32,322 nucleotides of DNA from Pelagibius marinus (GTDB taxonomy: Bacteria > Pseudomonadota > Alphaproteobacteria > Kiloniellales > Kiloniellaceae): contig NZ_JACSDK010000024.1 of the NCBI RefSeq assembly GCF_014925385.1, positions 1-32,322 of the forward strand. Reading direction: 5' to 3'. The notes beneath the pieces are model-generated. The model saw nothing but the letters and a program-made list of their open reading frames with translations, did not search any database and had not been told where the DNA came from. Below, in pieces: positions 1,003-31,481 of the stretch. A program made the translations under genes and the position numbers. Positions within the stretch are counted from its first letter, which is position 1; the number at the start of each line of letters is the position of its first letter.

Positions 1003-1016
1003 GCGACCTAGGTCGT
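1003..1016. promoter_or_regulatory. Palindromic operator upstream of the nosR-like gene
   Basis: GCGACCTAGGTCGT contains the perfect 12-bp palindrome CGACCTAGGTCG, centred about 43 bp upstream of the nosR-like start. The same pattern recurs at 6323-6336 and three times at 8108-8155, always upstream of alcohol-oxidation genes. The most likely reader is a regulator of that pathway. The LuxR-type response regulator at 12519 is a candidate, but nothing in the sequence proves it. Confidence 0.5.
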
Positions 1017-1052
1017 ATACTCGGTCCGGCGGACGGCACCTAGACTTGCCGC

Positions 1053-3134
1053 ATGAAGTGGCCCCGCCAAAGCATTGGTCTTTATGCAGGTGCTATCGCG
1101 CTGATCGCTCTGGCGATGCTGCCGCTGCCCGGCGCCGGCGCGCCGCTCGGCAAAGAGCGCCTGGCAGAGCTTGTCCTGCCGCCCTACTCGCTGGGGGAGC
1201 CGGTCAACGACAAGGGGGTCTGGGGCCTGGTCAACTCCGGCGGCACCCCGGCCGGCTATGTCTTCGAGACCGAACCCCTGGCCCCGCTGCCGGGCTTCTC
1301 CGGCGCACCCATCAACGTCCTGGTGATGATCGACCTGGAAGGGCGCTTCCTCGACCTTCGCCTCATCCACCACAACGAGCCGATCTTCGTCTCCGGGCTC
1401 GGCGAGGCGCCCTTCCACAGATTCTTTGAGCAGTACCGGGGCCACTCGATCAACTCAACCCTGGTGGTCGGCGTGCCCTACGGGCATGCCGACACCGCCT
1501 CCTCCCTCGTCTACCTGGACGGCGTGACCAAGGCCACCGCCAGCGTGCGGATCGCTCATGAGAGCGTCCTCGCCGCTACCCTGGCGGTGGTGCGCGAGAA
1601 GATGCAGGGTGTGATCAGCGGCCCGCCCAGCGCCCCCAATCCGAACCACGACGAAGCGCTCAACTGGCAGGACCTCGTCGATCAGGGGCTGGCGAGACAT
1701 CGCCGCGTGAGCAATGCCGAGGTCCAAAAGGCCTTTGCCGGCACTCTCTGGGAAGGCGACGACCCGGAAGCGCTGGAAGACCCCGAAGGTGCCTACCTGG
1801 ACCTCTGGATCGTCGACCTCGGCCCGCCTTCCATCGCCCGAGCCGTGCTCAGCGACGACAGCCTCGCCGAACTGGCGGCGTTCCGCGCGGTCTCCCCGAA
1901 CGACGAGCCACTGCTGCTGCTCGACGCGGGCCGGCACGGCCTGGTGTCGCCGGACTTCGTGCGCAACACCAGCCCAGACTGGCTGTCCGCGACGCAGGAC
2001 GGCCTGCCGGTTACCCTGCGGGATGCCGATCTCCTGGTGAACCTTAAAGAAGACCTGCCCGATGGCACTGCCATGATCCTGCGCAGCGACCGGCGGCTCG
2101 GCTTCGATCCGACCCGGGAGTGGACCCTGAACGTCCTGGCCGTCCGCAAGCACGGCTCCTTCCAGCCGCAGGTCGGCACAGCGACGCTCTCGGCCCGTCA
2201 CAAGACAGCCGCGCGCTTCTATCTCGGCCCCGGCAGCGCCGAAGTAACCGACCCCTGGCGCCAGGCGCTGCGCAATCGGGCCGGCGACCTGACGCTGCTG
2301 TCCGTCTTCCTCTCCGGCCTGCTGGGGCTCCTGGCCCTGGGCATGAACCGCTTGGCGGCGTTGCACAGCTTTACGCCGGCGCGTCTGGCGATCCTCGCCG
2401 CGGTGACCGGCTTCGTCGGCTGGTGGGGCCAGGGACAGCTCTCCATCGTAACCCTCCTGGCCGTGCTGAGGGCCGCTGTCGACGGGGGCAGCCTCGCCTT
2501 CCTGCTGTTCGATCCCTTCTCCCTGCTCGTCTGGGCCGCCGCGATCCTCGGCCTTTTCCTATGGGGACGCGGTCTGTTTTGCGGCTGGCTCTGCCCCTTC
2601 GGGGCGCTGCAGGAGTTCGCCCACCACATCGGACTGCGTCTCGGCTTGCGGCAGATCGAGCCCCCGGCGCGCTGGGACCGGCGCCTGAAGGCGGTGAAAT
2701 ACGGGCTCCTGGCCGGCCTTGTGGCAGTGGTCTTCGCCACACCGGATAAGATCGAGATCTTCGCCGAGGTGGAGCCCTTCAAGACGGCGATCACCGTCGC
2801 TTTCCGGCGCGAGTGGATCTACGTGCTCTATGCCGCGAGTTGGCTCGCTCTCGGCCTCTTCCTGTTCAAGGGCTTTTGCCGCTACATCTGCCCGCTGGGC
2901 GCGGCGATGGCACTTGCCGGCCTGCTGCGCCGCCGCGACTGGATCGCGCGGCGCGCGGAATGCGGCGCTCCCTGCCAGCTCTGCCGGGTGCGCTGCAAGT
3001 ACGGCGCGATCGCCCCATCTGGCCGGGTCGACTACAGCGAATGCTTCCAGTGCCTGGACTGCATCAGGATCCATGACGACCCGGCGCTCTGCGTGCCGCA
3101 GGTTCTGGCGGAAAGGAGGCGCAGCGCCGCATGA
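1053..3134 (+). CDS. NosR/NirI-like membrane flavin/iron-sulfur electron-transfer protein
   Basis: This 693-residue protein has the NosR/NirI layout. An N-terminal signal/membrane segment is followed by a periplasmic FMN-binding domain, where the DGVTKAT motif puts the candidate flavinylated Thr at about residue 162. A long periplasmic linker leads to several membrane helices (about 415-620). These include the two cytoplasmic CxxxCP motifs, CGWLCP (Cys510) and CRYICP (Cys609). A cysteine-rich ferredoxin-like tail (about 637-683) carries C-x3-C-x2-C-x3-C and CFQCLDC. Family members move electrons between the quinol pool or cytoplasm and periplasmic redox enzymes; NosR itself serves N2O reductase. 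No nosZ, nosD or denitrification gene is in the window. The gene overlaps apbE by 4 bp and shares an operator-like palindrome with the alcohol-oxidation genes, so a role in that pathway is inferred. The ribosome-binding site is weak. Confidence 0.85.
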   Translation: MKWPRQSIGLYAGAIALIALAMLPLPGAGAPLGKERLAELVLPPYSLGEPVNDKGVWGLVNSGGTPAGYVFETEPLAPLPGFSGAPINVLVMIDLEGRFLDLRLIHHNEPIFVSGLGEAPFHRFFEQYRGHSINSTLVVGVPYGHADTASSLVYLDGVTKATASVRIAHESVLAATLAVVREKMQGVISGPPSAPNPNHDEALNWQDLVDQGLARHRRVSNAEVQKAFAGTLWEGDDPEALEDPEGAYLDLWIVDLGPPSIARAVLSDDSLAELAAFRAVSPNDEPLLLLDAGRHGLVSPDFVRNTSPDWLSATQDGLPVTLRDADLLVNLKEDLPDGTAMILRSDRRLGFDPTREWTLNVLAVRKHGSFQPQVGTATLSARHKTAARFYLGPGSAEVTDPWRQALRNRAGDLTLLSVFLSGLLGLLALGMNRLAALHSFTPARLAILAAVTGFVGWWGQGQLSIVTLLAVLRAAVDGGSLAFLLFDPFSLLVWAAAILGLFLWGRGLFCGWLCPFGALQEFAHHIGLRLGLRQIEPPARWDRRLKAVKYGLLAGLVAVVFATPDKIEIFAEVEPFKTAITVAFRREWIYVLYAASWLALGLFLFKGFCRYICPLGAAMALAGLLRRRDWIARRAECGAPCQLCRVRCKYGAIAPSGRVDYSECFQCLDCIRIHDDPALCVPQVLAERRRSAA

Positions 3135-4063
3135 GCAGGACAACCTTCTCCCGCCGCCGCTTCCTCGCCGTCGCCGCGGCAGCCCTGGCCGGCGGCCCCG
3201 CGGCGGCCCAGACCACCACCCGCTGGCAGGGCCGGGCGCTGGGTGCGGAAGCGACGATCACTCTGCGTGGCCCGCAGCGGGAGGCGGTCCGGGCCCTGGC
3301 GGCGGCGAAAGAGACGCTCCGGCAAATGGAGCGCCTCTTCAGCCTCTATGATCCGGGCTCGGCGCTCAGCCATTTGAACGCCACGGGCCGGCTCGAGCGG
3401 CCGGAAGAAGCGTTCCTGGCGCTGCTGCGGCTTGCCGACCGCATCCATCACGCGACCGGCGGTCTCTTCGATCCCAGTGTTCAACCGCTCTGGCGCGCCC
3501 TGGCTCGCAGCCAGGGCCGGCCGGACAGAGCCATGCTGGCACAAGCGGCCGCGCGCGTCGCTTGGCCGGGCGTCGCTTTCGACGAGGCCGAGGTCCGCTT
3601 TCTGCGGCCGGGCATGGCGCTGACGCTCAACGGCATTGCCCAGGGCTTTGCCACCGACCGGGTGGCGGAGGCGCTGAAGGCACAGGGCTTCGCCGCCACG
3701 CTGGTAAACATCGGTGAATTCCGCGCCGGCACGGGAAGCTGGCGCATCGGCCTGGCCGACCCGGCCTTCGGCCTTGTGCGCACGCGCAGCCTCTCCAACG
3801 CCGCCATTGCCACGTCGAGCCTCACAGCCCTGCCGTTCGGCAATGGGGGGCTCGGACACATCCTCAACCCGGCTGAACCCGGCCACCCGCCCCTGTGGTC
3901 GACGGTGAGCGTCGAGGCGGCGACGGCTGCCTATGCCGATGGCTATTCGACCGCCTTGTCTTTCTTCGCCACGGCGGCGGCCCGGTCCCTGCTGCACAGC
4001 CAGCCGGAGCTCCAGGCTATCCTTCTCGTCGACCATGACGGCGTGGTGATCGAGCTCACCTGA
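3131..4063 (+). CDS. apbE: FAD:protein FMN transferase (ApbE family), exported
   Basis: The 310-residue protein begins with SRRRFLAVAAAALAGG, a twin-arginine-type export signal ending near AAAQ. The family motifs follow in order: DPGSALSHLN, ATGGLFDPSV, the LNGIAQGFATDRV stretch, VNIGEFRA (usually VNIGG), and a C-terminal EAATAAYADGYSTALSF that supplies the metal-binding Asp/Thr region. ApbE enzymes use FAD and Mg2+ to attach FMN covalently to a Thr of partner proteins in the periplasm. The start overlaps the upstream stop codon (ATGA), implying translational coupling. The obvious substrate is the FMN domain of that NosR-like partner. Length and motifs are normal for the family. Confidence 0.9.
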   Translation: MSRTTFSRRRFLAVAAAALAGGPAAAQTTTRWQGRALGAEATITLRGPQREAVRALAAAKETLRQMERLFSLYDPGSALSHLNATGRLERPEEAFLALLRLADRIHHATGGLFDPSVQPLWRALARSQGRPDRAMLAQAAARVAWPGVAFDEAEVRFLRPGMALTLNGIAQGFATDRVAEALKAQGFAATLVNIGEFRAGTGSWRIGLADPAFGLVRTRSLSNAAIATSSLTALPFGNGGLGHILNPAEPGHPPLWSTVSVEAATAAYADGYSTALSFFATAAARSLLHSQPELQAILLVDHDGVVIELT

Positions 4064-4073
4064 GTTCCTGCAC

Positions 4074-4130
4074 GCCGCATGGGGGTGGAAAGTCGGGCAG
4101 CTACCTTCCACCCCCCCGTCCCCATGCGGC
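4074..4130. terminator. Bidirectional terminator hairpin between apbE and the DUF779 gene
   Basis: GCCGCATGGGG near 4074 pairs with CCCCATGCGGC ending at 4130, and an inner arm pairs GTGGAA with TTCCAC. The hairpin lies between convergent genes (apbE on plus, DUF779 on minus), where a shared terminator is expected. There is no long U tract. Confidence 0.65.
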
Positions 4131-4193
4131 CTTCTTACAAGGTCAGAACTCTGCGACCGCCCGGGAATCAGGAATTGACGTCAGTGCCGGCGC

Positions 4194-4574
4194 TCACGGC
4201 GCCGTGGAACCGGCCTGGTCTCGAGAGAGCTCGGCGCTTTCCGCATCGGTGAAGACCCGGCTGCGCGTCAGGAAGCGCAGGCCCTTGGGCGCCTCCAGGG
4301 AAAAGCCCGAGCCGCGGCCGGGCACCACGTCGATGATCAGCTGGGTGTGCTGCCAGTACTCGAACTGGGACTCGCTCATGTAGAAGGGGCAGCCGCCGAT
4401 CTCTCCCAGCTTCACGTCGCTGGCGCCGACCCGGAACTCGTCCCGCGGATAGCACATGGGCGCCGAGCCGTCGCAGCAGCCACCGGATTGATGGAACATC
4501 AAAGGCCCGTGCTGGGCCTCCAGCTCACCGATCAGCGCCAAGGCCGCATCGGTTGCAAGCACGCGTTCGACCAT
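4194..4574 (-). CDS. DUF779 family protein, aldehyde-dehydrogenase partner
   Basis: This 126-residue cytoplasmic protein has the conserved DUF779 cysteine motif SGGCCDGSAPMCYP, a later GGCPFYMS cysteine, and a WQHTQLIIDVVPGRGSGFSLE stretch typical of the family. DUF779 genes commonly sit beside NAD-dependent aldehyde dehydrogenases, and here the aldehyde dehydrogenase lies 64 bp upstream on the same strand. The function is not established; the cysteines suggest metal binding or redox protection of the partner, which is inference. A good ribosome-binding site (GGAGG) precedes the ATG. Confidence 0.8.
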   Translation of the reverse strand: MVERVLATDAALALIGELEAQHGPLMFHQSGGCCDGSAPMCYPRDEFRVGASDVKLGEIGGCPFYMSESQFEYWQHTQLIIDVVPGRGSGFSLEAPKGLRFLTRSRVFTDAESAELSRDQAGSTAP

Positions 4575-4638
4575 GGGGGTCCTCCAACACGAAGGGGCGC
4601 GGCCGAAACCGCGCCCGCTCCGCTCCTCAACATCGCGC

Positions 4639-6162
<1,524 letters not shown>

Positions 6163-6305
6163 TGGGATGTCCTCCTTGATTGATGCCGCCCCCCTTTCAG
6201 GCTCGGCTTACCGGGTTTGATTCTTGAGCGCTCTGTCGGAATGACGATGGCGACAATCCGAACGCTGTAACCTGTGGTTATCACGAATGGCCGGGCGCCT
6301 TCTTG

Positions 6306-6336
6306 ATAGACATTCGTCGCTATCGACTTTGGTCGC
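6306..6336. promoter_or_regulatory. Operator-like motif upstream of the aldehyde dehydrogenase
   Basis: TCGACTTTGGTCGC (6323-6336) matches the middle copy of the 8108-8155 array at 12 of 14 positions. A degenerate second copy, ATAGACATTCGTCG, sits exactly 17 bp away (6306-6319), the same phasing as in that array. The site lies about 165 bp upstream of the aldehyde dehydrogenase ATG on the minus strand. Confidence 0.45.
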
Positions 6337-6382
6337 ATAGGCGATACCTTGCGTCCTGCGGCGGTCGTGCGCCCGCCCGGCT

Positions 6383-7282
6383 TCACCACTGGGCCCTTGC
6401 GAAGCTCAGCCCGTAGTCTTCGAAGATCCGGCGCAGACGCCCGTCCTCCGCCAGGGCACGGATGGCATCGTCCACGGCATAAGCCAGCGGGCGGTAGTTG
6501 TGCCGTACAGCAACGCCGAGGGTCCATCGCCCGACAGCAAACCCCGGCAGCGGGGGTTGATGGAGGGCTAGCTTTGGCGTCAGCGCAAACTCCAGCTGCG
6601 AGCGCGCGCCCATTACGGCCTTCACCTCTCCTCCTGCCAGCGCGGCCATGGCCGCCGCCGGTGTTGGGTAGCGCCGGGTATTCTTCAACAACTGACCGTT
6701 GGCGAGTCCCGAAAGGTAGAAATCGGCAATCGAGTCGTTCTCGACCCCGACCGTGTCGAAGCGGAAGTACGCGGGCAGAGGCGCCGCGTCAGGGTAGCTC
6801 TCCCGGCTGTAGGCGATGGCAACGCTCTCGTTGAAGTACTGCCCCGTCAGCACGACCTGTTCTACGCGGCAGGCAAACTCGGAGCTGTAAGGCACGTGGA
6901 GCATCACGTTGCTCACCCGCCCTCCGACAACGGCCCCCTTCCACACGTAGTTGCGCAGGTCGTCTTCAACGGTTTCACCGGCCGCAACGAAGCGAAACCG
7001 GGGTAAGACGCCGAGCGCCGCCGCCACCAGGCGACCGACCTCCACATCAATCCCGCGGGGACGGCCGCCCTCCTCCCAGGAATAGGGCGGAAAGTCCTCG
7101 TAGACGGCGAACTCGATGAATCCGCGTTCACGGATCTGGTCGAGATCCTGACCGACGATGTCGCGGCCGGCGTTCTGCGGCCTTGCCCCGGGCACGTAAC
7201 TCTCGCAGCGGGACCAGGCAGTCCCGCCGGGAGCAAGCGCCATCACAAGGATGATGCAGAGAAAGAATGCCGCCCTGACCAT
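6383..7282 (-). CDS. PQQ-dehydrogenase-associated periplasmic substrate-binding-like protein (MoxJ/XoxJ type)
   Basis: A protein of about 299 residues with an N-terminal signal (MVRAAFFLCIILVMALAPGG) and a family-3 solute-binding fold. VYEDFPPYSWEEGGRPRGID is the first-lobe signature, and an HVPYSSEFACRVEQVVLTG region follows. Proteins of this group (MoxJ, XoxJ, quinoprotein-associated SBPs) accompany PQQ alcohol dehydrogenases and are thought to help activate or mature the enzyme rather than serve ABC import. No ABC permease or ATPase is nearby. The gene directly follows the cytochrome c on the minus strand. ATG at 7282 was chosen; a TTG at 7294, immediately after the cytochrome stop, is the alternative start. 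Confidence 0.8.
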   Translation of the reverse strand: MVRAAFFLCIILVMALAPGGTAWSRCESYVPGARPQNAGRDIVGQDLDQIRERGFIEFAVYEDFPPYSWEEGGRPRGIDVEVGRLVAAALGVLPRFRFVAAGETVEDDLRNYVWKGAVVGGRVSNVMLHVPYSSEFACRVEQVVLTGQYFNESVAIAYSRESYPDAAPLPAYFRFDTVGVENDSIADFYLSGLANGQLLKNTRRYPTPAAAMAALAGGEVKAVMGARSQLEFALTPKLALHQPPLPGFAVGRWTLGVAVRHNYRPLAYAVDDAIRALAEDGRLRRIFEDYGLSFARAQW

Positions 7283-7294
7283 CGGCCCGGCCAA

Positions 7295-8005
7295 CTACTC
7301 CGCGACCGACAGCCCGACGGTCAGCGCTTCGGCCGCCGACTTCCAGCTCTCCACTGATCCATCCAGGACCAGCGCCGCACGGTAGGCCACACTGTCCGCC
7401 AGCGGTGCGCCGGAACCCGTCACCACGTTGGCGGCGATCTCAAGCAGCTCCTGCTTTACAGATTCCGCTGCGGCGGCGTCACCGGGGGCCTCCTGCGACC
7501 ACTCGACAAGCTGGTCGCGGATTTCCTTCAGGCGCGCACTGAAGACGCCCAACGCTCCTTCGTCTGGCCGCGTCTCGATATAGGTGCGGATGGCCCAGCC
7601 GGCCTTTTGCCCCAACAGTTCGCCGAAGGCCGGCATCTTGGTCGTGCCATTCTGCGTATAGCCATGGCGAAACCGCTCCACGAACCACTCGTCGCCATAC
7701 TCTTCCGCTTCGAGATAGCGCAGATCCGGGGCAAGCCCGCCGGAGACGGCGCCCAGGCCATGACAGCGTGCGCAGTTCTGGTTGAAGCCTGAGGCACCGA
7801 TGTCGACGGCCTTCTGCCAGACTTCTTCCCCCATGTTGCGGTAAGGGTTCTCGGTCAGCCACTCCTCACCCACATCCGGCAAGGCATCCGTATTGACGGG
7901 CTGAGGCGCGACGTCACCGTGAGCATAGGCCAAGGTCGCGGCCACCAACGTCGCGAGACCGCAGAACGCGCCCCGGTACCAACCGACGGATGTCAGACCC
8001 AGCAT
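7295..8005 (-). CDS. Periplasmic cytochrome c-550 (PedF-like)
   Basis: This 236-residue protein has a Sec signal ending at LAYAHG. Its single haem-binding motif is NCARCHG, and a plausible Met ligand occurs in TKMPAFGELLG. The expected fold for a PQQ-ADH-associated cytochrome c-550 is followed by an additional helical C-terminal region of about 90 residues. It should accept electrons from the PQQ alcohol dehydrogenase and pass them to the terminal oxidase chain. The ATG at 8005 has a clear AAGGGAGG ribosome-binding site; an upstream extension lacking signal-peptide character was rejected. It is co-transcribed with the MoxJ-like gene and is divergent from the binding protein at 8211. Confidence 0.88.
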   Translation of the reverse strand: MLGLTSVGWYRGAFCGLATLVAATLAYAHGDVAPQPVNTDALPDVGEEWLTENPYRNMGEEVWQKAVDIGASGFNQNCARCHGLGAVSGGLAPDLRYLEAEEYGDEWFVERFRHGYTQNGTTKMPAFGELLGQKAGWAIRTYIETRPDEGALGVFSARLKEIRDQLVEWSQEAPGDAAAAESVKQELLEIAANVVTGSGAPLADSVAYRAALVLDGSVESWKSAAEALTVGLSVAE

Positions 8006-8107
8006 GGCATCCTCCCTTGAGTTCTTGTTCCTGGTCCACGCCACCCGGCGATACTGCCAGGTGACGGCAGCGCCGACTGTGCCTGCAAGGAAAGTGCGCG
8101 AGCCATC

Positions 8108-8155
8108 CCGACCTTGGTCGGATACCGACTTTGGTCGTACACCGACCTTGGTCGG
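8108..8155. promoter_or_regulatory. Three-copy palindromic operator array, 17-bp period
   Basis: Three 14-bp units, CCGACCTTGGTCGG (8108-8121), CCGACTTTGGTCGT (8125-8138) and CCGACCTTGGTCGG (8142-8155), are spaced exactly 17 bp apart. Each is an inverted repeat. The array lies in the divergent promoter region between the cytochrome c gene (minus) and the substrate-binding-protein gene (plus), so it may control both directions. Confidence 0.65.
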
Positions 8156-8210
8156 ATTCCGGACGCCACGGCCCGCAAGTACGATCGCCGCAACTAGGGA
8201 GGAACCGCGA

Positions 8211-9374
8211 ATGCGGACCATGATCTTGTCAGCGATCCTGGCTTTTGCCGCCTCTTCTGCTTCGGCCGAGGTGTCGGTGCGCATCGCCTATCTCGAACAT
8301 CAGGTCAAACACCCGCCGACGCTTTCCAATCTGGACCCCCTGCCCGAAGACCTCGGCCAAGCCGGCGCCGAGTTGGGCCTGGTGGAAAACCAGGCATCCG
8401 GAAGATTTCTCGGCCAGGCCTACACGCTCTCGGTCCGCAGCGTCCCGCCCGACGAAGATTTCCTGGCGGCCGGGCGTGAAGTGCTAAGCGAGACCAGGCT
8501 GCTCGTGGTCAAGGCGCCGGCCGAGGAGCTGTTGGCACTGGCCGACCTGCCGGAAGCCGCCGGCGCGCTGATCTTCAACAGCTCGGCGCAGGACACCCGC
8601 CTGCGCGATGCCGACTGCCGCGCCAACCTGCTGCACAGTATTCCCAGCTACGCCATGCGCGCCGACGCCCTGGCGCAGTTCATGAGCAAGAAGCGCTGGT
8701 CGGTCTGGGCCCTGGTCGTCGGCACGCACCCCGGCGACCTTGCTTTCGCCGAGGCCCTGCGCGCGGCGGCCCGCAAGTTCGGGCTGCGTATCAGCGACGA
8801 AAAGACCTGGGCCTTCGGCGCGGACATGCGCCGCAACGCAGCGCAGGAGGTGCCGCCCTTCACCCAGTCCCTCAAGGCGCATGACGTGCTGGTGGTGGCC
8901 GACGAGATCGGCGATTTCGGCCGCTACCTGCTCTACAACACCTGGCTGCCGCGGCCCGTCGCAGGCTCAGAGGGCGTGGCTCCCATGGCCTGGTCCGGCG
9001 CCGTGGAACAGTGGGGCGCCGCCCAGCTGCAGGGCCGTTTCTATGCCAGGACGGGACGGAAGATGCGGGCCGAGGACTATGCCGCCTGGGCCGCGGTGCG
9101 CAGCATCGGCGAAGCGGTAACCCGCAGCGGCGCGGACGAGCCTGATGCCCTGCGCGACTATATTCTCTCCGATGCCTTCGAGCTCGCCGGCTTCAAGGGG
9201 CGCCCCCTGAGCTACCGGCAATGGAACGGCCAGCTGCGCCAGCCCATTCCCCTCGTCCAACCCCGCGCCCTGGTCGCCCAGGCGCCGCTGGACGGCTTCC
9301 TGCACCAGCACACGGAGCTCGACACGCTCGGCCTCGATGCCCCTGAGTGCAACTGCCGCGCCTTCCTGGAGTAG
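8211..9374 (+). CDS. PQQ-dependent alcohol-oxidation-associated ABC-type substrate-binding protein
   Basis: A 387-residue protein with signal peptide MRTMILSAILAFAASSASA. The body resembles the periplasmic branched-chain-type binding proteins that are specific to PQQ-alcohol-dehydrogenase loci: VRIAYLEHQ, a PEDLGQAGAELG segment, SIPSYAMRADALAQFM and the RSIGEAVTRSG tail. These proteins are found with a PQQ-linked ABC system, but no ATPase or permease is in this window. ATG at 8211 follows a clean GGGAGGA site. The beta-propeller gene starts 7 bp after the stop, indicating an operon. Confidence 0.8.
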   Translation: MRTMILSAILAFAASSASAEVSVRIAYLEHQVKHPPTLSNLDPLPEDLGQAGAELGLVENQASGRFLGQAYTLSVRSVPPDEDFLAAGREVLSETRLLVVKAPAEELLALADLPEAAGALIFNSSAQDTRLRDADCRANLLHSIPSYAMRADALAQFMSKKRWSVWALVVGTHPGDLAFAEALRAAARKFGLRISDEKTWAFGADMRRNAAQEVPPFTQSLKAHDVLVVADEIGDFGRYLLYNTWLPRPVAGSEGVAPMAWSGAVEQWGAAQLQGRFYARTGRKMRAEDYAAWAAVRSIGEAVTRSGADEPDALRDYILSDAFELAGFKGRPLSYRQWNGQLRQPIPLVQPRALVAQAPLDGFLHQHTELDTLGLDAPECNCRAFLE

Positions 9375-9381
9375 CAGGCCC

Positions 9382-10344
9382 ATGTTGCGAATCACCATAC
9401 AGCTGCTGACTCTTGCCGCACTCGCCGGTCCGGCCGGCGCCGCCGAAGTCTGGATCACCAACGAGAAAGACAACACCATCAGCGTCATTGACAGCGAGAG
9501 CCTGGAGGTCGTCCGCACCCTGCCGACCGGGGAGCGTCCCCGCGGCATCACCTTCTCCAAGGATTACAGCCGGGTCTACATCTGCGCATCCGACAGCGAC
9601 ACCGTCCAGGTGATGGATCCGGAGACCGGCGAGATTCTGCACAACCTGCCCTCGGGCGAGGATCCGGAGCAGTTCGTGCTGCATCCCGACGATCGCCACC
9701 TGTACATCGCCAACGAAGACGACGCCGTCGCCACTGTCGTCGATACCGAGTCGCGCCGCGTGGTGGCCCAGATCGATGTCGGGATCGAGCCGGAGGGCAT
9801 GGCCGTTTCCCCCGACGGCAAGCTGATCATCACGACATCCGAAACCACGAACATGGCGCATTGGATCGACACACAGACCCATCGCGTCGTCGCCAACACG
9901 CTGGTGGATGCGCGCCCCCGCCATGCGGAGTTCACCAAGGATGGATCGAAGCTCTGGGTCAGCGCCGAGATCGGTGGCACCATTTCCGTATTCCGGGTTG
10001 CCGACCACAGCGAGATCACAAAGATCGGTTTTTCGATCAGGGGGATCCGCGACGACGCGATCCAGCCGGTCGGGTTCGAATTCAGCCCGGACGGGCGCCG
10101 GGCCTTCGTGGCCCTAGGCCCGGCCAATCACATCGCCGTCGTCGACACTGAAACCTACGAAGTCGAGAAATACATCCTGGTCGGCCGCCGCGTCTGGCAT
10201 ATGGAATTCTCGCCCGACAAGGCGCGCCTGTTTGTCACTAACGGTGTATCGGGCGACGTGACCGTGATCGATACCGCGCGGCTGACGCCGATCAAGACGG
10301 TCAAGGTCGGCCGCTTTCCCTGGGGCGCAGCGGCGCGTCCTTGA
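9382..10344 (+). CDS. PQQ-dependent catabolism-associated YVTN beta-propeller protein
   Basis: A 320-residue protein with a Sec signal (MLRITIQLLTLAALAGPAGA) and about seven YVTN-like blades. Examples are VWITNEKDNTISVID, VYICASDSDTVQVMD, LYIANEDDAVATVVD, LWVSAEIGGTISVF and LFVTNGVSGDVTVID. It is periplasmic. Family members sit with PQQ alcohol dehydrogenases; their molecular job is not established. It directly follows the substrate-binding protein in an apparent two-gene operon upstream of the dehydrogenase. Confidence 0.85.
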   Translation: MLRITIQLLTLAALAGPAGAAEVWITNEKDNTISVIDSESLEVVRTLPTGERPRGITFSKDYSRVYICASDSDTVQVMDPETGEILHNLPSGEDPEQFVLHPDDRHLYIANEDDAVATVVDTESRRVVAQIDVGIEPEGMAVSPDGKLIITTSETTNMAHWIDTQTHRVVANTLVDARPRHAEFTKDGSKLWVSAEIGGTISVFRVADHSEITKIGFSIRGIRDDAIQPVGFEFSPDGRRAFVALGPANHIAVVDTETYEVEKYILVGRRVWHMEFSPDKARLFVTNGVSGDVTVIDTARLTPIKTVKVGRFPWGAAARP

Positions 10345-10589
10345 GGCAAGGCGCCGAGGGCTACGCGTCAGCAAAGGCGCGCTCGGCAGCCATTCGCAAC
10401 ACCGTTCCATCTGGTCGGAGCGGCCTGTGGCTTAGTTGTGCTCAAACTCAAGGGCGTGCGCGCCAGGTCTTACGACCAATGTGTAAGTTCCAAAGCCTTC
10501 GGGCGGGACAGATACTCGAAACCTGATTGAAGTCTGCAGCCTTCGTGAGTGGAACGGCTGCCGCAAACAAGGAGAGGGAGGAATCAACT
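10345..10589 (+). promoter_or_regulatory. Upstream region of the PQQ alcohol dehydrogenase
   Basis: This 245-bp non-coding stretch must contain the dehydrogenase promoter. It holds a GGTC-N4-GACC inverted repeat (10466-10477), an overlapping CTTAC/GTAAG pair, and only a right half of the shared operator (TGGTCGG, 10412-10418). A good ribosome-binding site (AAGGAGAGGGAGG) precedes the ATG. No convincing sigma-70 or sigma-54 elements were identified. Confidence 0.4.
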
Positions 10590-12356
10590 ATGCGCCGGTT
10601 CTTGCTAGCTGCCGCCGCTGGAATCCTGGTGTCCGCTACGGCCCAGGCCCAGGTGACGGAAGATGACCTGAAAAACGATCAGACGATCACGACACAGATC
10701 GTCACCAACGGCATGGGGCGGCATCTTCAGCGCTACAGCCCGCTGAAGATCGTCAACAAAGAGAACGTGAAGAACCTGCTTCCGGTCTGGGCTTTCTCGC
10801 TTGGCGGGGAGAAGCAGAGGGGTCAGGAAAGCCAGCCCCTGGTGTATGACGGCGTGATGTACATCACCGCCTCCTATTCCCGGCTCTTTGCCATCGACGC
10901 CCGCACGGGTGAAGAAATCTGGCAGTACGACGCCCGCCTTCCGGAAGGTATCCTGCCCTGCTGCGACGTCATCAACCGCGGCGCCGCGATCTACGGTGAC
11001 AAGATCTACTTCGGCACGCTCGACGCGAGAATCGTCGCGCTTGACCGCAAGACGGGCGACGTGGTCTGGCGCAAGAAGATCGCGGACTACAAGGCCGGCT
11101 ACTCCTATACCGCCGCCCCCATTATCGTGAACGGCCTGGTCATCACCGGCAATTCGGGTGGTGAGTTCGGCATCGTCGGCGAAGTGCAGGCGCGCGACGC
11201 GGAGACCGGCGAAATGGTGTGGACCCGGCCGGTGATCGAGGGGCACATGGGCACCTACAAGGGCAAGCCCTCGACGATGACCGGCAAGCTGAACGCAACC
11301 TGGCCGGGCGACCTCTGGAAGACCGGCGGCGGCGCCACCTGGCTTGGCGGTTCCTACGATGCCGAGACCGATACCCTGGTCTTCGGCGCCGGCAACCCGG
11401 CCCCTTGGAACAGCCACCTCCGCAATGCCGGCGAACCCCGGCCCGACAATTCGGGAGACAATCTCTACGCCGCCTCGCGGATTGGCATCAATCCCGCAAA
11501 CGGCGAGATCAAGTGGCACTTCCAGACCACGCCGCGCGAAGGCTGGGACTTTGACGGCGTGAATGAGGTGGTCCCCTTCGTCGACGCGAAGGGCGACAAG
11601 CGCTTCGCCACGGCCGACCGCAATGGCTTCTTCTACGTGCTGAACCGGGAGGACGGCGCCTTCGTCGACGCCTTCCCCTTCGTGAAGAACATCACCTGGG
11701 CCAAGGGCATCGACAAGAACGGCCGGCCGATCTACGTCGAGGAAAACCGGCCGGGCAACCCTTCTGCCGCAGCCGACGGCGCCAAGGGCGAGACCATCTT
11801 CGCGGTGCCTTCCTTCCTGGGCGGCAAGAACTGGATGCCGATGGCCTACAGCCAGGATACGGGCCTGTTCTACGTGCCGTCCAACGAATGGGGCATGGAT
11901 ATCTGGAACGAGCCCATCTCCTACAAGAAGGGCGCGGCCTACCTGGGCGCCGGCTTCACGATCAAGCCGCTGTTCGAGGATCACATCGGCTCGCTGAAGG
12001 CGATCGATCCGCTGACCGGCGAGACTCAGTGGGAGTACAAGAACAACGCGCCGCTGTGGGGCGGCGTGATGACCACGGCCGGTGGCCTGGTCTTCACCGG
12101 GACGCCGGAAGGCCTTTTCAAGGCTTTCGACGACGAAACCGGCGAGGAGCTGTGGTCGTTCCAGACCGGTTCGGGCATCGTCGGCCAGCCAGTCACCTGG
12201 GAGATGGACGGCGAGCAGTATGTCGCCGTGATCTCCGGCTGGGGCGGCGCGGTCCCGCTGTGGGGCGGCGAGGTCGCGAAGAAGGTCAACTACCTGAACC
12301 AGGGCGGCCTGGTCTGGGTTTTCAAGGTGCCGAAGCAGCTGGTCTCGGCCAACTAG
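10590..12356 (+). CDS. PQQ-dependent alcohol dehydrogenase, predicted lanthanide type (PedH/ExaF-like)
   Basis: A 588-residue periplasmic quinoprotein with signal [20 protein letters not shown] and an eight-bladed propeller of W-motifs. The vicinal disulfide is Cys124-Cys125 ([10 protein letters not shown]). Metal/PQQ ligands are Glu192 (SGGEFG), Asn269 ([10 protein letters not shown]) and catalytic Asp320 in GWDFDG. Asp322, two residues after the catalytic Asp, is the residue that marks lanthanide-dependent XoxF/ExaF/PedH enzymes; calcium enzymes have Ala, Ser or Thr there. No C-terminal haem domain is present, so electrons must go to a separate cytochrome, probably the c-550 at 7295-8005. 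It oxidises primary alcohols to aldehydes; the exact substrate range is unknown. ATG at 10590 is preferred over upstream starts because the signal peptide and Shine-Dalgarno site fit. Confidence 0.93.
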
Positions 12357-12406: not shown

Positions 12407-12518
12407 CCCAGTGCCCTAGCTTGGCCCCCCTACCTTGATCGAGTATCGAAGCGGGCCGTCTTCTGCTAGCATGAATTCTTGGTCGAAAGCGGTGCAAGCG
12501 GTGGAAAGCAGTAACCAA

Positions 12519-13232
12519 ATGACGGAGGCCTCGACAGATCCCGCGCCACAGCCGGAGAAAGTCAGCTTGGTCTGCGCACTTATCGTCGACGATCACCCGC
12601 TCTTCTGTGAAGCGCTCTCGATGACGCTGAAAACTGCCGTCAAAGTGGACAAGGTCCTGACCGCCGGGCGCCTCGAAGACGCGATTGCCCTGCTGGGCGA
12701 GGCGACCAAGCCGGACGTCATCCTGCTGGACCTCAACCTGCCTGGCGTCAACGGCCTGGACGGCCTGATCCGCCTGAAGAGGGCCGCGCCGCAGGTCCCC
12801 ATCATCGTCGTTTCCTCATTGTCGGAGAACCGCATCATCACCTCCGCCATCCGGGCCGGCGCTGCGGGTTTCGTGCCCAAGCACAGCCAGCGGGACGTCT
12901 TCACCCGCGCCTTTGCCGACATCTGGGCCGGAAAGGTACATCTTCCTAGCGACTATGTGGCCCCCGCCGAAGAGGACGGCGACGCCCCCTCGGCCAGCGA
13001 GGACGTGATCCAGCGCCTGGCACAGCTGACACCGCAGCAGGCCCGGATCCTGCAGTGCATCTGCGAGGGCAAGCTGAACAAGCAAATCGCCTACGACCTC
13101 TCCATCGCCGAGGCCACCGTTAAGGCCCATATCACCGCCATTATGCGCAAGCTTGGCGTCCACAACCGTACACAGGCCGTGGTGATGGCCCAGAACGCCC
13201 ACTTTTCAAAGCTCTTGCAAGACGACAACTAG
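12519..13232 (+). CDS. LuxR-family response regulator (ErbR/AgmR-like)
   Basis: A 237-residue two-domain regulator. The receiver domain (about 22-140) has acidic residues in IVDDHPLF, the phosphorylatable Asp71 in VILLDLNLPG, and a conserved Lys in FVPKHS. A LuxR-type HTH follows (about 170-230: LTPQQARILQCICEG, NKQIAYDLSIAEATVKAHI). In pseudomonads, regulators of this type (AgmR/ErbR) control PQQ ethanol oxidation, which fits the position right after the alcohol dehydrogenase. The ATG at 12519 was chosen for the conserved start of the receiver; an in-frame ATG at 12471 is possible but has no ribosome-binding site. Confidence 0.85.
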   Translation: MTEASTDPAPQPEKVSLVCALIVDDHPLFCEALSMTLKTAVKVDKVLTAGRLEDAIALLGEATKPDVILLDLNLPGVNGLDGLIRLKRAAPQVPIIVVSSLSENRIITSAIRAGAAGFVPKHSQRDVFTRAFADIWAGKVHLPSDYVAPAEEDGDAPSASEDVIQRLAQLTPQQARILQCICEGKLNKQIAYDLSIAEATVKAHITAIMRKLGVHNRTQAVVMAQNAHFSKLLQDDN

Positions 13233-13283: not shown

Positions 13284-14465
13284 ATGGGAGCAATGGCTCC
13301 GCCCTGTGCGGCGGACGTGGCTGGGGTGCCTGTTCTGCGGACAGCCCATGCCGCGGCCGACGATGCCCAAGCCGCGATTTCCCGGATTGCGGCCGAGATC
13401 GGGCCCACCGAGCTCAGCCTGGTAGTGCTCTTCATCTCACCCAACGCCGACCTGCCCGCCGTGGCCGGCGCCGCCCGGGAGGCCTTCGGCACCACGCCGG
13501 TGATCGGCTGCACAACTGCCGGCGAGATCTCATCGGAAGGCTATACGGAGAACGAGATCGTCGCCGCCGCCTTCCCCTCGTCGCACTTCGTCTCTCTGAT
13601 CCACCTGATCGACAATCTGGAGAAACTGGGCCGCCGCCACGTCGCCAGCGCCACGGTGCGGCTGCGCGGAGAGCTGGCGCGCATGGCGCCCGACTGGCAC
13701 TCCGAGTTCGCCTTCCTTATGGTCGACGGCATGTCGCTGCTGGAGGACCAACTGGTCTCGACGCTCGACCTGGCGCTGGGCCCGGTGCCGCTGTTCGGCG
13801 GCTCGGCCGGCGATGGCCTCGATTTCCGGCAGACTTTCATTCTTTGCAACGGCAGCATCTACCAGAACGCTGCCGTGCTGGCGCTGCTGCGCACCAGCTG
13901 CCAAATAAAGGTCTTCAACTTCGACCATCTGCAGCCCACGGACCGCAAGATGGTGGTCACCGAAGCGGATCCGGAGCGGCGGGTCGTGCACGAGATCAAT
14001 GCGGAGCCGGCTGCACGCGAATATGCACGGGTCGTCGGCCTGGACTCGGAGCAACTCTCCCCCTTCATCTTTGCGGCCCATCCGGTAGTGGTGAAGGTCG
14101 GTGGCAGGCATCACGTGCGCGCCATTCAGAAAGTCGAGCCGAACGGCGACCTGACGTTCTTTTCGGCCATCGACGAGGGCCTGGTCCTGACGCTCGCCGA
14201 GCCACGCGACATCGCCGCTCATCTCGACGAGGCCCTGCACGACCTTTCGAATTCGGCAGCACCGGAGGCCATCATCGCTTGCGACTGTATCCTGCGCCGC
14301 CTCGAGGCCGAGCAGAAGCAGGCGGTCGGCGCGGTCTCGCGCATCCTCTCCAAGAACAAGGTGATCGGATTCAGCACCTATGGCGAACAGATGAACGCCG
14401 TGCACGTGAACCAGACCATGACCGGCATCGCCATCTATCCGCCGTCACCACCAAGGGAGCCCTGA
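13284..14465 (+). CDS. FIST-domain sensor protein
   Basis: This 393-residue cytoplasmic protein contains FIST_N (about 35-240, with the hallmark VIGCTTAGEISS) and FIST_C (about 240-385, with VIGFSTYGEQ near the end). FIST proteins are proposed small-ligand sensors, possibly for amino acids, that work with signalling proteins. The next gene, a hybrid histidine kinase, starts 5 bp after the stop, so the two are surely co-translated. The likely role is to supply the input to that kinase. No transmembrane segment or catalytic domain is visible. Confidence 0.85.
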   Translation: MGAMAPPCAADVAGVPVLRTAHAAADDAQAAISRIAAEIGPTELSLVVLFISPNADLPAVAGAAREAFGTTPVIGCTTAGEISSEGYTENEIVAAAFPSSHFVSLIHLIDNLEKLGRRHVASATVRLRGELARMAPDWHSEFAFLMVDGMSLLEDQLVSTLDLALGPVPLFGGSAGDGLDFRQTFILCNGSIYQNAAVLALLRTSCQIKVFNFDHLQPTDRKMVVTEADPERRVVHEINAEPAAREYARVVGLDSEQLSPFIFAAHPVVVKVGGRHHVRAIQKVEPNGDLTFFSAIDEGLVLTLAEPRDIAAHLDEALHDLSNSAAPEAIIACDCILRRLEAEQKQAVGAVSRILSKNKVIGFSTYGEQMNAVHVNQTMTGIAIYPPSPPREP

Positions 14466-14470
14466 GGCCC

Positions 14471-16717
14471 TTGCTGGTAGACCCCAACGATTCCGTCGAG
14501 CTGCAGCAGAAGAAGCTGCTCAAGATCACCTCCGTGCTGATGCGGCGCGTGGAACAGGCGACAAACGAAAGCGGCGCCGCCTATGCCCACTTCCACCGCG
14601 CCCTCATGCTGGAAGAAGAGGTTCGCGCGCGCACGGCGGACCTGGAACAGACTCTCGAACTGCTGAACCAGTCGAACGCGGAGCTGTCGAGAGCGACGGC
14701 CGCCGCCGAGCGCGCGCGGGCGGACCTGTCCAATGCCCTGGAGGCTGTGCAGGAGGGTTTCGCTATTTTCAATGCCGACGACGTCATGGTCATGTGCAAC
14801 AGCCGCTTCGGCATGCACATGCCTGATGTCAGGCAGGCGCTGCAGCCCGGGCTGACCTTCCAGGAGTTCGTGCGCGTGGTCAGCCACAGCCCCTTCCTGG
14901 CCCTGCCGGACGGTGAAACGCCGGAAAGCTGGGCCCGCAAGCGCAAGCGCAAGCACCGGGAAAGCCACGTCAATTTCAATGTCAGGGTCGCCCAGGACCG
15001 CTGGATCCAGGTCAGCGAACACCGGACGCCGGATCAAGGGACGGCGATCCTGCAGACCGACGTGACCGACATGATCCGGCTGGAGCGGCGGGAAAGAGAC
15101 AAGCTGCTGGACGACCAGGCGCGGCTGATCCGGGCGACCCTGGACCACATCAACCAGGGGATCTGCATCTTCGACAGCGAGCACCGCCTTGCCGGCTCGA
15201 ACACGCGTTTCGGTGAGCTGCTGCATCTACCCATGAGCCTCCTGCGTGTCGGCCGGAGCTTCGAGCACCTCTTCGAGCACATCGGCGGAGACCTGGCCTT
15301 TCCTGACGGTCAGTCGCTTTCGACGCTGACCGATTGGGTGAACCATGGTGGCGGCCGGTTGCCGCTTTCCCTGGAGGCCAAGCATCAGGGCCGCACCTAT
15401 CTCGACGTCTCCGGCCAGGAGATGCCGGACGGTGGTTTCGTGATCAGCTTCACCGACGTCACCGCCGAGCGCGAGGCGATAGAAGCGCTCTCGGCGATCA
15501 ACGAGACCCTGGAACAGCGGGTGCTGGAGCGCACCCTGGCGCTGGAGGACGCGCTGCAGGAAGCGGAGCGCGCCAATGCCTCCAAGTCGCGCTTCGTCGC
15601 CGCCGCCAGCCATGACCTGCTGCAGCCGCTGTCGGCGGCCAAGCTGTTCATCTCCTCCCTGGAGGAGATGGCACTCGGCGAGGGGGCCCGCCTGACCGCC
15701 CAGAAGGCCAGCAGCGCCCTCGGCAGCGTGGAGGCGATCCTCGGCGCGCTGCTCGACATTTCAAAACTCGACTCGGGCCGCGCGGCCGTCGAGGTCACGG
15801 CCTTTCCGATAGACCAGATCCTGGGACCGCTGCGCGATGAGTTCGAGCCCCTGGCCCAGCAGAAGGGCCTCACCCTGACGGTCATGGACTGCAAGCTCAT
15901 GGTAGAGAGCGATCCGGCCTACCTGCGGCGAATTCTTCAGAACCTGATCGCCAACGCCATCCGCTATACCAAGTCGGGCAGAGTGCTGGTCGGCACCCGC
16001 CGGCAGGCATCGAGCCTGACGCTGCAGGTCTGGGACAGCGGTCCCGGTATTCCGGAAGACCAGCAAGACGTCATCTTCAAGGAGTTCCAGCGCCTCGACA
16101 CAACCGAGTGCGCGGGCGAGAGCGCAGGCGTCGGCCTGGGCCTCGCCATCGTCGAGCGTGCCTGCACCCTGCTCGGCCATGCGTTGTCCCTGCGCTCACA
16201 GCCGGGGCGCGGCACCGCCTTCTTCGTGACCGTTCCCAGAGCCGCCGGTGCGGCGCCGGCGAGAACCATCCAGCGCCGCATCGACCCGGCGGACGGCCAG
16301 GACGCGGCGGATCTCATCGCGCTGGTGATCGAGAACGACCGCGGCATGCGCGACGCCATGACGACACGACTCGAGAACTGGGGCATCAGTGTGTTCGACG
16401 TTGCCGGCCAGGCCGAAGCCGTGGCTTTGCTGCAGGACGTCGGAGTCGCACCGGATGTGCTGCTCGTCGACTACCAACTGGACGGCGGCGAGGATGGTAT
16501 TTCCGCAATTAAGGAGATCCGCAGGCTGTTCGGCGACATTCCGGCGGCCCTCGTGACCGCCAACAGGTCCAGCGAACTGCGCCACGCCTGCCAGTCCACA
16601 GAAATCCACTACCTGAACAAGCCGGTCGAGTCAGACGCCCTGCGCCAGTTTCTTGTTACGGTGCGTCCACGGGCTGCCTTGACCGACGGCCAGCCGGCAC
16701 TCCTCTCCGCGCCGTGA
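14471..16717 (+). CDS. PAS-domain hybrid sensor histidine kinase with C-terminal receiver
   Basis: Read from a TTG at 14471 (AAGGGAG upstream), this is a 748-residue soluble protein. An N-terminal coiled coil (about 15-85) is followed by PAS 1 (about 87-195, ALEAVQEGFAIFNADD) and PAS 2 (about 220-340, TLDHINQGICIFDSEH). A second coiled coil leads to HisKA with phospho-His381 in AASHDLLQPL. HATPase_c has an N box (NLIANAIRYTKSG), DSGPGIP and GVGLGLAIV. A receiver follows with Asp667 in VLLVDYQLDG. No membrane helices are seen, so the signal is cytoplasmic and probably arrives through the FIST protein. Related hybrid kinases are linked to ethanol-oxidation control in Pseudomonas. The start codon is uncertain; the frame is open far upstream inside the FIST gene. 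Confidence 0.85.
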   Translation: MLVDPNDSVELQQKKLLKITSVLMRRVEQATNESGAAYAHFHRALMLEEEVRARTADLEQTLELLNQSNAELSRATAAAERARADLSNALEAVQEGFAIFNADDVMVMCNSRFGMHMPDVRQALQPGLTFQEFVRVVSHSPFLALPDGETPESWARKRKRKHRESHVNFNVRVAQDRWIQVSEHRTPDQGTAILQTDVTDMIRLERRERDKLLDDQARLIRATLDHINQGICIFDSEHRLAGSNTRFGELLHLPMSLLRVGRSFEHLFEHIGGDLAFPDGQSLSTLTDWVNHGGGRLPLSLEAKHQGRTYLDVSGQEMPDGGFVISFTDVTAEREAIEALSAINETLEQRVLERTLALEDALQEAERANASKSRFVAAASHDLLQPLSAAKLFISSLEEMALGEGARLTAQKASSALGSVEAILGALLDISKLDSGRAAVEVTAFPIDQILGPLRDEFEPLAQQKGLTLTVMDCKLMVESDPAYLRRILQNLIANAIRYTKSGRVLVGTRRQASSLTLQVWDSGPGIPEDQQDVIFKEFQRLDTTECAGESAGVGLGLAIVERACTLLGHALSLRSQPGRGTAFFVTVPRAAGAAPARTIQRRIDPADGQDAADLIALVIENDRGMRDAMTTRLENWGISVFDVAGQAEAVALLQDVGVAPDVLLVDYQLDGGEDGISAIKEIRRLFGDIPAALVTANRSSELRHACQSTEIHYLNKPVESDALRQFLVTVRPRAALTDGQPALLSAP

Positions 16718-19952: not shown

Positions 19953-20006
<54 letters not shown>

Positions 20007-31220: not shown

Positions 31221-31481
31221 CCAAAATGCCTGTATCGCCGTCCGCTGGGAACGACCGCTGGGGGAACAGGCTCACCGAAACCGTCTGCGCAACGACTCTG
31301 CAGCCGGCATCCGGACCGCAGAGCCATGCAGAGGAAAGCCGTCTCCTTTTTGCGTGAGAATGCGGGCTAACTCACTCCAAATGGCCGGGGTTAGCATGTA
31401 GTCATAAATCGCCAAGTCGGTTTGGTCGAGCCATCACGCTGATTGGGGCCACCGAGACGGCGCGGCGGCGAGTGAGACCGG
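31221..31481. other. Stretch without a convincing gene after the TRAP operon
   Basis: No intact gene is supported. A minus-strand frame (31272-31397) would encode 41 residues, beginning MLTPAIWSELARILTQKGDG. It is coherent-looking but unrecognised and may be a fragment of a lost gene. Confidence 0.35.

What the first reader, a model, noticed from the sequence alone, without database searches (positions are those of the whole stretch)
1003..8155. A shared palindromic operator links a NosR-like/ApbE pair to an alcohol-oxidation regulon
CGAC(C/T)T(T/A)GGTCG occurs as a perfect palindrome upstream of the nosR-like gene (1003-1016), upstream of the aldehyde dehydrogenase (6323-6336) and three times between the cytochrome c and binding-protein genes (8108-8155). 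I noticed no full copy elsewhere in the window; half-sites occur at 10412 and near 31411. The simplest reading is one regulator controlling alcohol oxidation and a flavin/Fe-S electron-transfer module together.
Basis: partly seen in the sequence, partly recalled or inferred. Interest (0 to 1): 0.75.

Follow-up and report, generated by a model that had tools for sequence, protein, structure and literature searches.

The report
Shared operator for alcohol-oxidation genes
A short mirror-image DNA signal, placed at a fixed distance in front of several promoters, ties a membrane flavin/iron-sulphur electron carrier to the genes for oxidising alcohols, and it is conserved in many related bacteria, most likely as the landing site of the alcohol-response regulator encoded beside them.

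Summary
CGACYTWGGTCG occurs five times in the window, always between genes; the other three copies in the 5.44 Mb genome lie in coding DNA. At five promoters (nosR, SBP, dehydrogenase, regulator, pqqA) a -10-like hexamer starts 32-33 bases past the box centre, implying a class II activator position near -43.5; the exaC box and the pedF side lack it. A matrix with sites from the window's order only finds the box in Rhodobacteraceae before nosR (64 of 77), SBP (49 of 52) and dehydrogenase genes (38 of 39), but in 2 of 175 internal control regions. The nosR-like gene and this dehydrogenase co-occur in 76 of 394 genomes; 4 and 2 have one alone. The box resembles the ACTU box of CrbR/ErdR, and the cluster encodes a regulator of that subfamily beside NosP/NahK-like genes. 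Best reading: an AgmR-type operator; binding is inferred. NosR-like/ApbE with ExaA was already in print; I found no report of this operator.

The parts
1004..1015 (+). Operator box of nosR-apbE (CGACCTAGGTCG); -10-like TAGACT at 1041-1046
1053..3134 (+). NosR/NapH-like membrane protein with candidate flavinylation motif DGVTKAT and Fe-S motifs
   Evidence: NCBIfam NosR 428.9 bits (cut-off 1000, not met), Pfam Fer4_5; motif
3131..4063 (+). ApbE flavin transferase; its start overlaps the nosR-like stop
   Evidence: Pfam ApbE 160.5 bits
4194..4574 (-). DUF779 protein
   Evidence: Pfam DUF779
4639..6162 (-). ExaC acetaldehyde dehydrogenase; with DUF779 it lies between apbE and the SBP3 gene, which adjoin in close relatives
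   Evidence: 933.9 bits, cut-off 900
6324..6335 (-). Operator box upstream of exaC; no -10-like hexamer at the usual offset
6383..7282 (-). SBP_bac_3 periplasmic protein
7295..8005 (-). Cytochrome c-550 PedF
   Evidence: 195.9 bits, cut-off 122
8109..8120 (+). Operator box 1 of three between pedF and SBP
8126..8137 (+). Operator box 2 (17 bp spacing)
8143..8154 (+). Operator box 3; -10-like TACGAT at 8180-8185 for the SBP operon
8211..9374 (+). PQQ-dependent alcohol dehydrogenase system substrate-binding protein (TIGR03863)
   Evidence: 481.6 bits, cut-off 413.6
9382..10344 (+). PQQ-dependent catabolism-associated beta-propeller (TIGR03866)
   Evidence: 521.6 bits, cut-off 287.3
10473..10484 (+). 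Degenerate operator box of the PQQ dehydrogenase gene (CGACCAATGTGT); -10-like GATACT at 10511-10516
10590..12356 (+). PQQ methanol/ethanol-family dehydrogenase; WDFDGVN and vicinal Cys
   Evidence: 782 bits, cut-off 480
12430..12441 (+). Weak operator box before the regulator gene (CTACCTTGATCG); -10-like TAGCAT at 12467-12472
   Evidence: score 10.0
12519..13232 (+). LuxR/NarL-type response regulator, AgmR/ErdR subfamily; likely binder of the box (open frame from 12435)
   Evidence: best NCBIfam hit ErdR 173.1 bits (cut-off 390, not met)
13284..14465 (+). FIST protein, NosP-like
   Evidence: NosP 416.8 bits, cut-off 450; FIST
14462..16717 (+). Hybrid histidine kinase, NahK/ErcS-like
   Evidence: 384.1 bits, cut-off 400

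Best explanation
The palindrome CGAC-N4-GTCG (fuller consensus over 166 sites ATATTGGACCAAGGTCGTAT) is the operator of the AgmR/ErdR-type response regulator encoded at 12519-13232. A phosphorylated dimer would bind the box centred near -43.5 and recruit RNA polymerase (class II activation). This would switch on together the PQQ alcohol dehydrogenase gene, its SBP/beta-propeller and PedF genes, PQQ synthesis and the NosR-like/ApbE flavin-Fe-S membrane module, perhaps with weak autoregulation. The signal probably comes from the adjacent NosP/NahK-like pair or another kinase that responds to alcohol oxidation. Shown here: the box, its genomic specificity, its conservation, its fixed distance to a -10-like hexamer, and its co-distribution with the regulator. 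Inferred: the binding protein, phosphorylation, activation rather than repression, and the signal.
For: Specificity: the only strict copies between genes are the 5 of this cluster. Without a seed motif, the best of 69,088 dyads in 24 upstream regions of 6 clusters (window included) are parts of TATACGACCAAGGTCG, apart from one GGA-GGA dyad in the top 25 lines. Independent test in Rhodobacteraceae with a matrix seeded from published ACTU sites and built from order sites only: nosR 64 of 77, SBP 49 of 52, pedF 50 of 52 (same intergenic region as SBP), dehydrogenase 38 of 39; controls apbE 2 of 70, propeller 0 of 52, SBP3 0 of 53 (an earlier version gave 62 of 78, 45 and 46 of 53, 39 of 40 and 0 of 178). 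Best -10-like hexamer at offset 31-33: 16 of 19 promoters in the order, 91 of 153 in Rhodobacteraceae, with 3 of 45 offsets expected. ACTU likeness: column correlation 0.80, 0 of 2000 column shuffles as high; the published box sits at -52 to -36. The regulator's best family is ErdR, beside NosP- and NahK-like genes. In the order, all 6 clusters with the regulator ortholog have the box, and the clusters that keep dehydrogenase and NosR without it (G053-G055) have none at score 15.
Against: No binding or expression data. The regulator misses the ErdR cut-off. In Rhodobacteraceae, G460 and G577 have a strong nosR box (L210, L238), and G629 one only, but no regulator at E 1e-62 (only 7 candidates per genome were scored). 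13 of 77 nosR regions have no box over threshold, among them L176, L195 and L250, whose genomes have the regulator. Regulator-gene boxes are weak: 3 of 17 or 6 of 18. The window's exaC box and the pedF side lack a -10-like hexamer at the right offset, and in a Ruegeria plasmid only 4 of 7 boxes have their best hexamer there. G053-G055 are one genus, so that contrast is one event. Counts ignore shared ancestry; L084 and L085 are near-identical and both are.
Confidence: 0.8

Rival explanations
1. Another LuxR/NarL-type regulator, such as a CrbR/ErdR acetate regulator or an ExaE/PedR2-like one encoded elsewhere, binds the box, and the neighbouring regulator acts on other sites.
For: The box resembles the ACTU box of CrbR. 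Candidates are numerous: 74 first-look matches to the regulator in the own genome, 48 of them scored. G460 and G577 have the nosR box without a detected ortholog.
Against: The regulator is encoded beside the dehydrogenase gene in all 6 clusters of the order that have the box, and in L010. The clusters with NosR and dehydrogenase but without the regulator ortholog have no box.
Confidence: 0.12
2. The box is a repressor operator rather than an activator site.
For: Palindromes near promoters can be repressor sites. ErdR was reported to repress most of its tested new targets in P. aeruginosa (PMC9927353, passages).
Against: The box lies just upstream of the -35 position, not over the -10 or start. 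The ACTU box is needed for activation (PMC5715377, passages). PedR1/AgmR activates ped genes (PMC13390443, passages).
Confidence: 0.06
3. The motif is a by-product of common descent of a compact gene cluster, not a functional site.
For: Clusters are related, so counts are not independent.
Against: The box stays before nosR where the dehydrogenase gene is over 20 kb away (6 of 6) or on another contig (8 of 12). Internal gene starts mostly lack it (2 of 175). The offset to the -10-like hexamer is fixed.
Confidence: 0.02

Closest known systems
ACTU box of CrbR/ErdR (Pseudomonas, acetate utilisation; PMC5715377, passages)
   Same: Imperfect inverted repeat with the same CGAC-N4-GTCG architecture and A/T flanks (correlation 0.80 with 5 listed sites, some only predicted in the paper), just upstream of a sigma-70-type promoter (-52 to -36; here centred about -43.5 by inference); regulator of the same LuxR-type subfamily.
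   Different: Alphaproteobacteria; PQQ alcohol oxidation and NosR-like/ApbE genes instead of acs/actP; the linked kinase is NahK/ErcS-like, not an SLC5/STAC kinase; regulator below the ErdR cut-off.
AgmR/PedR1/ErbR regulon of Pseudomonas (PMC12997753 and PMC13390443, passages)
   Same: A LuxR-type regulator that activates PQQ dehydrogenase, pedF and pqq genes; neighbours PP_2663 (NosP) and PedS1 (NahK/ErcS').
   Different: No operator sequence in the passages I saw; the terms NosR and ApbE do not occur in the main text of PMC12997753.
NapH-like flavinylated systems with ExaA (PMC8238504, passages)
   Same: Already reports NapH-like flavinylation clusters with an ethanol oxidase in 172 genomes and proposes electron transfer from it.
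   Different: No regulatory link in the passages seen. There the module is proposed in the role that cytochrome c plays elsewhere; here PedF cytochrome c is encoded too.
RpuR box of the pyruvate symporter operon (Sinorhizobium; PMC9100948, passages)
   Same: A promoter element needed for a response regulator linked to an SLC5/STAC kinase in Alphaproteobacteria.
   Different: An imperfect direct repeat, not an inverted one.

Membership tests
CrbR/ErdR ACTU operator | 17 bp imperfect inverted repeat like TACTACCATCGTCGAAT | tested here: met
   Column correlation 0.80; 0 of 2000 column shuffles as high. A matrix from 4 published sites has the box among its top three in nosR 6 of 7, SBP 7 of 7 and dehydrogenase 7 of 7 upstream regions of regulator-bearing clusters.
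CrbR/ErdR ACTU operator | Position just upstream of the sigma-70 promoter (-52 to -36) | tested here: met
   Implied centre -43.5 from the -10-like offset, 16 of 19 promoters; start sites not mapped.
CrbR/ErdR ACTU operator | Regulates acs/actP via CrbS-CrbR | not tested
   acs promoters of this genome were not examined.
ErdR (NF041830) | Curated cut-off 390 bits | tested here: not met
   173.1 bits, still the best family.
AgmR/PedR1-type system | LuxR-type regulator beside NosP and NahK/ErcS-type kinase and the PQQ dehydrogenase | tested here: inconclusive
   Gene order fits, but NosP (416.8 of 450 bits) and the NahK/ErcS C-terminal model (384.1 of 400) are just under cut-off, and no Pseudomonas AgmR sequence was compared.
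AgmR/PedR1-type system | Regulator binds and activates these promoters | not testable with these tools
   Needs a binding or expression assay.
NosR (NF046105) | Curated cut-off 1000 bits | tested here: not met
   428.9 bits; NosR/NapH-like, so not filed as the N2O-respiration NosR.
Flavinylated NapH-like system | FMN attachment motif plus ApbE plus Fe-S motifs | tested here: met
   DxxTxAT or DxxSxAT in 82 of 89 ortholog sequences, two contigs counted twice; ApbE adjacent in the order. The motif rule is recalled; flavinylation not shown.
Lanthanide-type PQQ dehydrogenase | Second Asp (WDxD) | tested here: met
   WD[YF]D in 46 of 46 dehydrogenase sequences of the clade, two contigs counted twice; also seen in the 12 more distant dehydrogenases, so it does not set the clade apart. 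The metal rule is recalled; metal not tested.

The most novel reading that the evidence does not exclude
The box marks an AgmR-type regulon in Alphaproteobacteria in which the NosR-like/ApbE protein is a near-obligate partner of one clade of vicinal-cysteine, lanthanide-type PQQ alcohol dehydrogenases. It would carry electrons across the membrane for that enzyme alongside, not instead of, cytochrome c-550, for example to or from the quinone pool or to keep the dehydrogenase disulphide in its working state.
Probability: 0.35. Interest if true: 0.7.

Novelty: new variant of a known kind. Interest (0 to 1): 0.52.

Why it matters
It gives a concrete, testable operator for an AgmR-type regulator, for which I found none in the open-access library searched. 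It ties an uncharacterised flavin/Fe-S membrane protein to a defined periplasmic oxidation by regulation as well as by co-inheritance. The box can be used to find further regulon members, such as the xanthine-dehydrogenase-type operon on a Ruegeria plasmid.

Tried and rejected
Strict pattern in relatives: none of the loci of relatives scanned carries CGACYTWGGTCG exactly; conservation shows only with a matrix or dyads.

Quinoprotein relay genes (SoxYZ-like, zinc metallohydrolase) as a mutually exclusive alternative to NosR-like/ApbE: rejected as a rule, since 5 of 91 nosR-bearing loci also carry them in the stretch held.

The box as a feature of all PQQ clusters: 22 other TIGR03863 clusters of the order and L011 have no hit at score 15 (some stretches are short). 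In five further plasmid loci (top 8 hits each), two Azospirillum loci have drifted boxes (up to 16.5), Paracoccus one strong site (21.4), Sphingobium and Variovorax nothing convincing.

A first count of 'unlinked' nosR (19 of 25) used only the stretches held; with the dehydrogenase places, 4 of the 25 are within 20 kb and 3 have no dehydrogenase found, so I use instead.

The matrix was built from order sites but started from one that had included L010, whose contig (L181) was in the test; one search repeats the test without either. First offset histograms were centred on the matrix, not the 12-base core; redone, the only one used for counts.

exaC elsewhere: of 4 exaC loci fetched, 2 have a strong box (L265, L266), one a moderate hit (L268, 10.7), one none (L267).

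Rows dropped: L084 (near-identical to L085) and from training; L009 (same contig as L086) and L175 (45% NosR, one hit of score 16) from the counts; L181; upstream regions cut by contig ends; promoters under score 11.5 and under 12.
Full report
Setting. The window is a whole 32,322-base contig of a 5.44 Mb genome. The cluster reads: NosR-like, ApbE, DUF779 and ExaC, SBP_bac_3, PedF, PQQ-system SBP, beta-propeller, PQQ dehydrogenase, LuxR-type response regulator, FIST protein, hybrid kinase.

Observation. The five sites are real. Genome-wide the strict pattern has three further copies, inside frames I read by eye as thioredoxin and two GroEL genes. The reversed-pattern control gives 7 hits. An extended pattern with one mismatch finds only the five window sites and the two GroEL places. 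Five sites in 7.2 kb is far beyond chance.

Further copies. A matrix trained on relatives without the window ranks the sites at 1001, 8140, 10470, 8106, 6321 and 8123 as the six best places in the window, and 12427 as the eighth. The 10470 site precedes the dehydrogenase gene, the 12427 site the regulator gene. pqqA, on another contig, has CGACTTTAGTAT upstream (score 11.3).

Geometry. At nosR, SBP, the regulator gene and pqqA a -10-like hexamer starts at base 32 past the box centre, and at the dehydrogenase gene at base 33. In the window's order 16 of 19 promoters over score 11.5 have their best hexamer at 31-33, and in Rhodobacteraceae 91 of 153; 3 of 45 offsets would be expected. This implies a box centred near -43.5; start sites are not mapped. 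The exaC box and the pedF direction in the window do not show it. Of four exaC loci fetched from other genomes, two Rhodobacteraceae ones have a strong box, with the best hexamer at 32 (weak in L266).

Conservation in the order. The NosR-like ortholog (E 1e-100) occurs in 9 of 61 genomes. In all nine its gene lies with apbE beside a dehydrogenase gene of the same clade (80-88% identity to the window's, one partial). The regulator ortholog (63% identity or more) is in six of 59 genomes searched, and all six clusters have the box at score 15. Three genomes of one genus keep the dehydrogenase and NosR, have no regulator match at E 1e-45 (48 candidates scored in each), and have no box. An unbiased dyad count over 24 upstream regions of six clusters gives parts of TATACGACCAAGGTCG, apart from a GGA-GGA dyad that looks like the ribosome site.

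Independent test. In Rhodobacteraceae, 80 of 394 genomes have the NosR-like ortholog (E 1e-150). I fetched stretches for all 80. A matrix seeded with published ACTU sites and built from five loci of the window's order gives, over the 99th percentile of dinucleotide shuffles: nosR 64 of 77, SBP 49 of 52, pedF 50 of 52, dehydrogenase 38 of 39, regulator 3 of 17, against apbE 2 of 70, propeller 0 of 52, SBP3 0 of 53. SBP and pedF share one intergenic region, so they are mostly the same sites. The earlier version agrees: 62 of 78, 45 and 46 of 53, 39 of 40, 6 of 18, controls 0 of 178. Where the dehydrogenase gene is over 20 kb from nosR on the same contig, 6 of 6 nosR regions have the box; where it is on another contig, 8 of 12 (some of those nosR genes are near contig ends). 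The genomes are related, so these are not independent events.

Co-occurrence. NosR-like and dehydrogenase: 76 genomes with both, 4 and 2 with one alone, 312 with neither. The regulator is in 76 of the 80 NosR genomes and in 52 without NosR, so its role is wider. Against the model: G460 and G577 have a strong nosR box but no regulator found (one search scored 7 candidates per genome), and L176, L195 and L250 have no nosR box although their genomes have the regulator. Assembly gaps or the scoring cap could explain the former; I did not test that.

Named example. On a Ruegeria plasmid (L273) pqqA and nosR diverge from one intergenic region with two boxes. Further boxes precede pedF/SBP, the dehydrogenase gene, the regulator gene and a xanthine-dehydrogenase-type operon. 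Four of these seven boxes have their best -10-like hexamer at 32-33.

What it is. The box correlates at 0.80 with ACTU sites of CrbR/ErdR; 0 of 2000 column shuffles reach that. The ACTU box lies at -52 to -36 and is needed for activation (PMC5715377, passages). The window's regulator has ErdR as best family, but under its cut-off, and sits beside NosP- and NahK/ErcS-like genes just under their cut-offs, as agmR does in Pseudomonas (PMC12997753, passages). I therefore call it AgmR-type; no AgmR sequence was compared. PedR1/AgmR activates pedE, pedF and pedI (PMC13390443, passages).

Function of the NosR-like protein. DxxTxAT or DxxSxAT is in 82 of 89 sequences and Fe-S motifs are common, so a flavinylated electron carrier is likely (inferred). 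NapH-like/ApbE clusters with ExaA in 172 genomes were reported in PMC8238504 (passages), so that part is not new. The dehydrogenases of the clade have WD[YF]D and vicinal Cys in 46 of 46 sequences, but more distant ones in the set have WDxD and a CC pair too; WDxD as a lanthanide signature is recalled.

Print check. Search listings, and the passages read, gave no operator for AgmR and no regulatory link between NosR-like/ApbE and PQQ dehydrogenases. Subscription papers on AgmR were not available.

Verdict. It is a new variant of a known kind of operator with a clear, testable regulator.

Noticed in passing
L273:23332-23351: A Ruegeria operon of xanthine/CO-dehydrogenase-type genes inside the cluster has its own box (score 19) with a weak -10-like hexamer at offset 32, so it may belong to the regulon.
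   Followed up: partly
G017, G019, G020: Three close relatives have the PQQ dehydrogenase cluster but no PqqB over the family cut-off.
   Followed up: no
Rhodobacteraceae genomes; L271: 52 genomes have the regulator without NosR-like; in G700 (L271) boxes precede the regulator gene and no dehydrogenase of this clade is within the 11 kb held. Its targets there are unknown.
   Followed up: no
1009-1053: With the -10-like TAGACT, the nosR-like transcript would start at or near its ATG (leaderless).
   Followed up: no
4194-6162: DUF779-exaC sits between apbE and the SBP3 gene, which adjoin in close relatives; no exaC hit at E 1e-200 in the 8 relatives searched.
   Followed up: partly
L094 (own genome C20): A second TIGR03863 cluster in the same genome has no box at score 15.
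   Followed up: no
L275, L277: Azospirillum PQQ clusters carry drifted boxes such as CTACCATAGTNCAAT near pedF/SBP, pqqA and the aldehyde dehydrogenase gene.
   Followed up: partly
19980-19999: Isolated moderate matrix hit (11.5) outside the cluster, not examined further.
   Followed up: no
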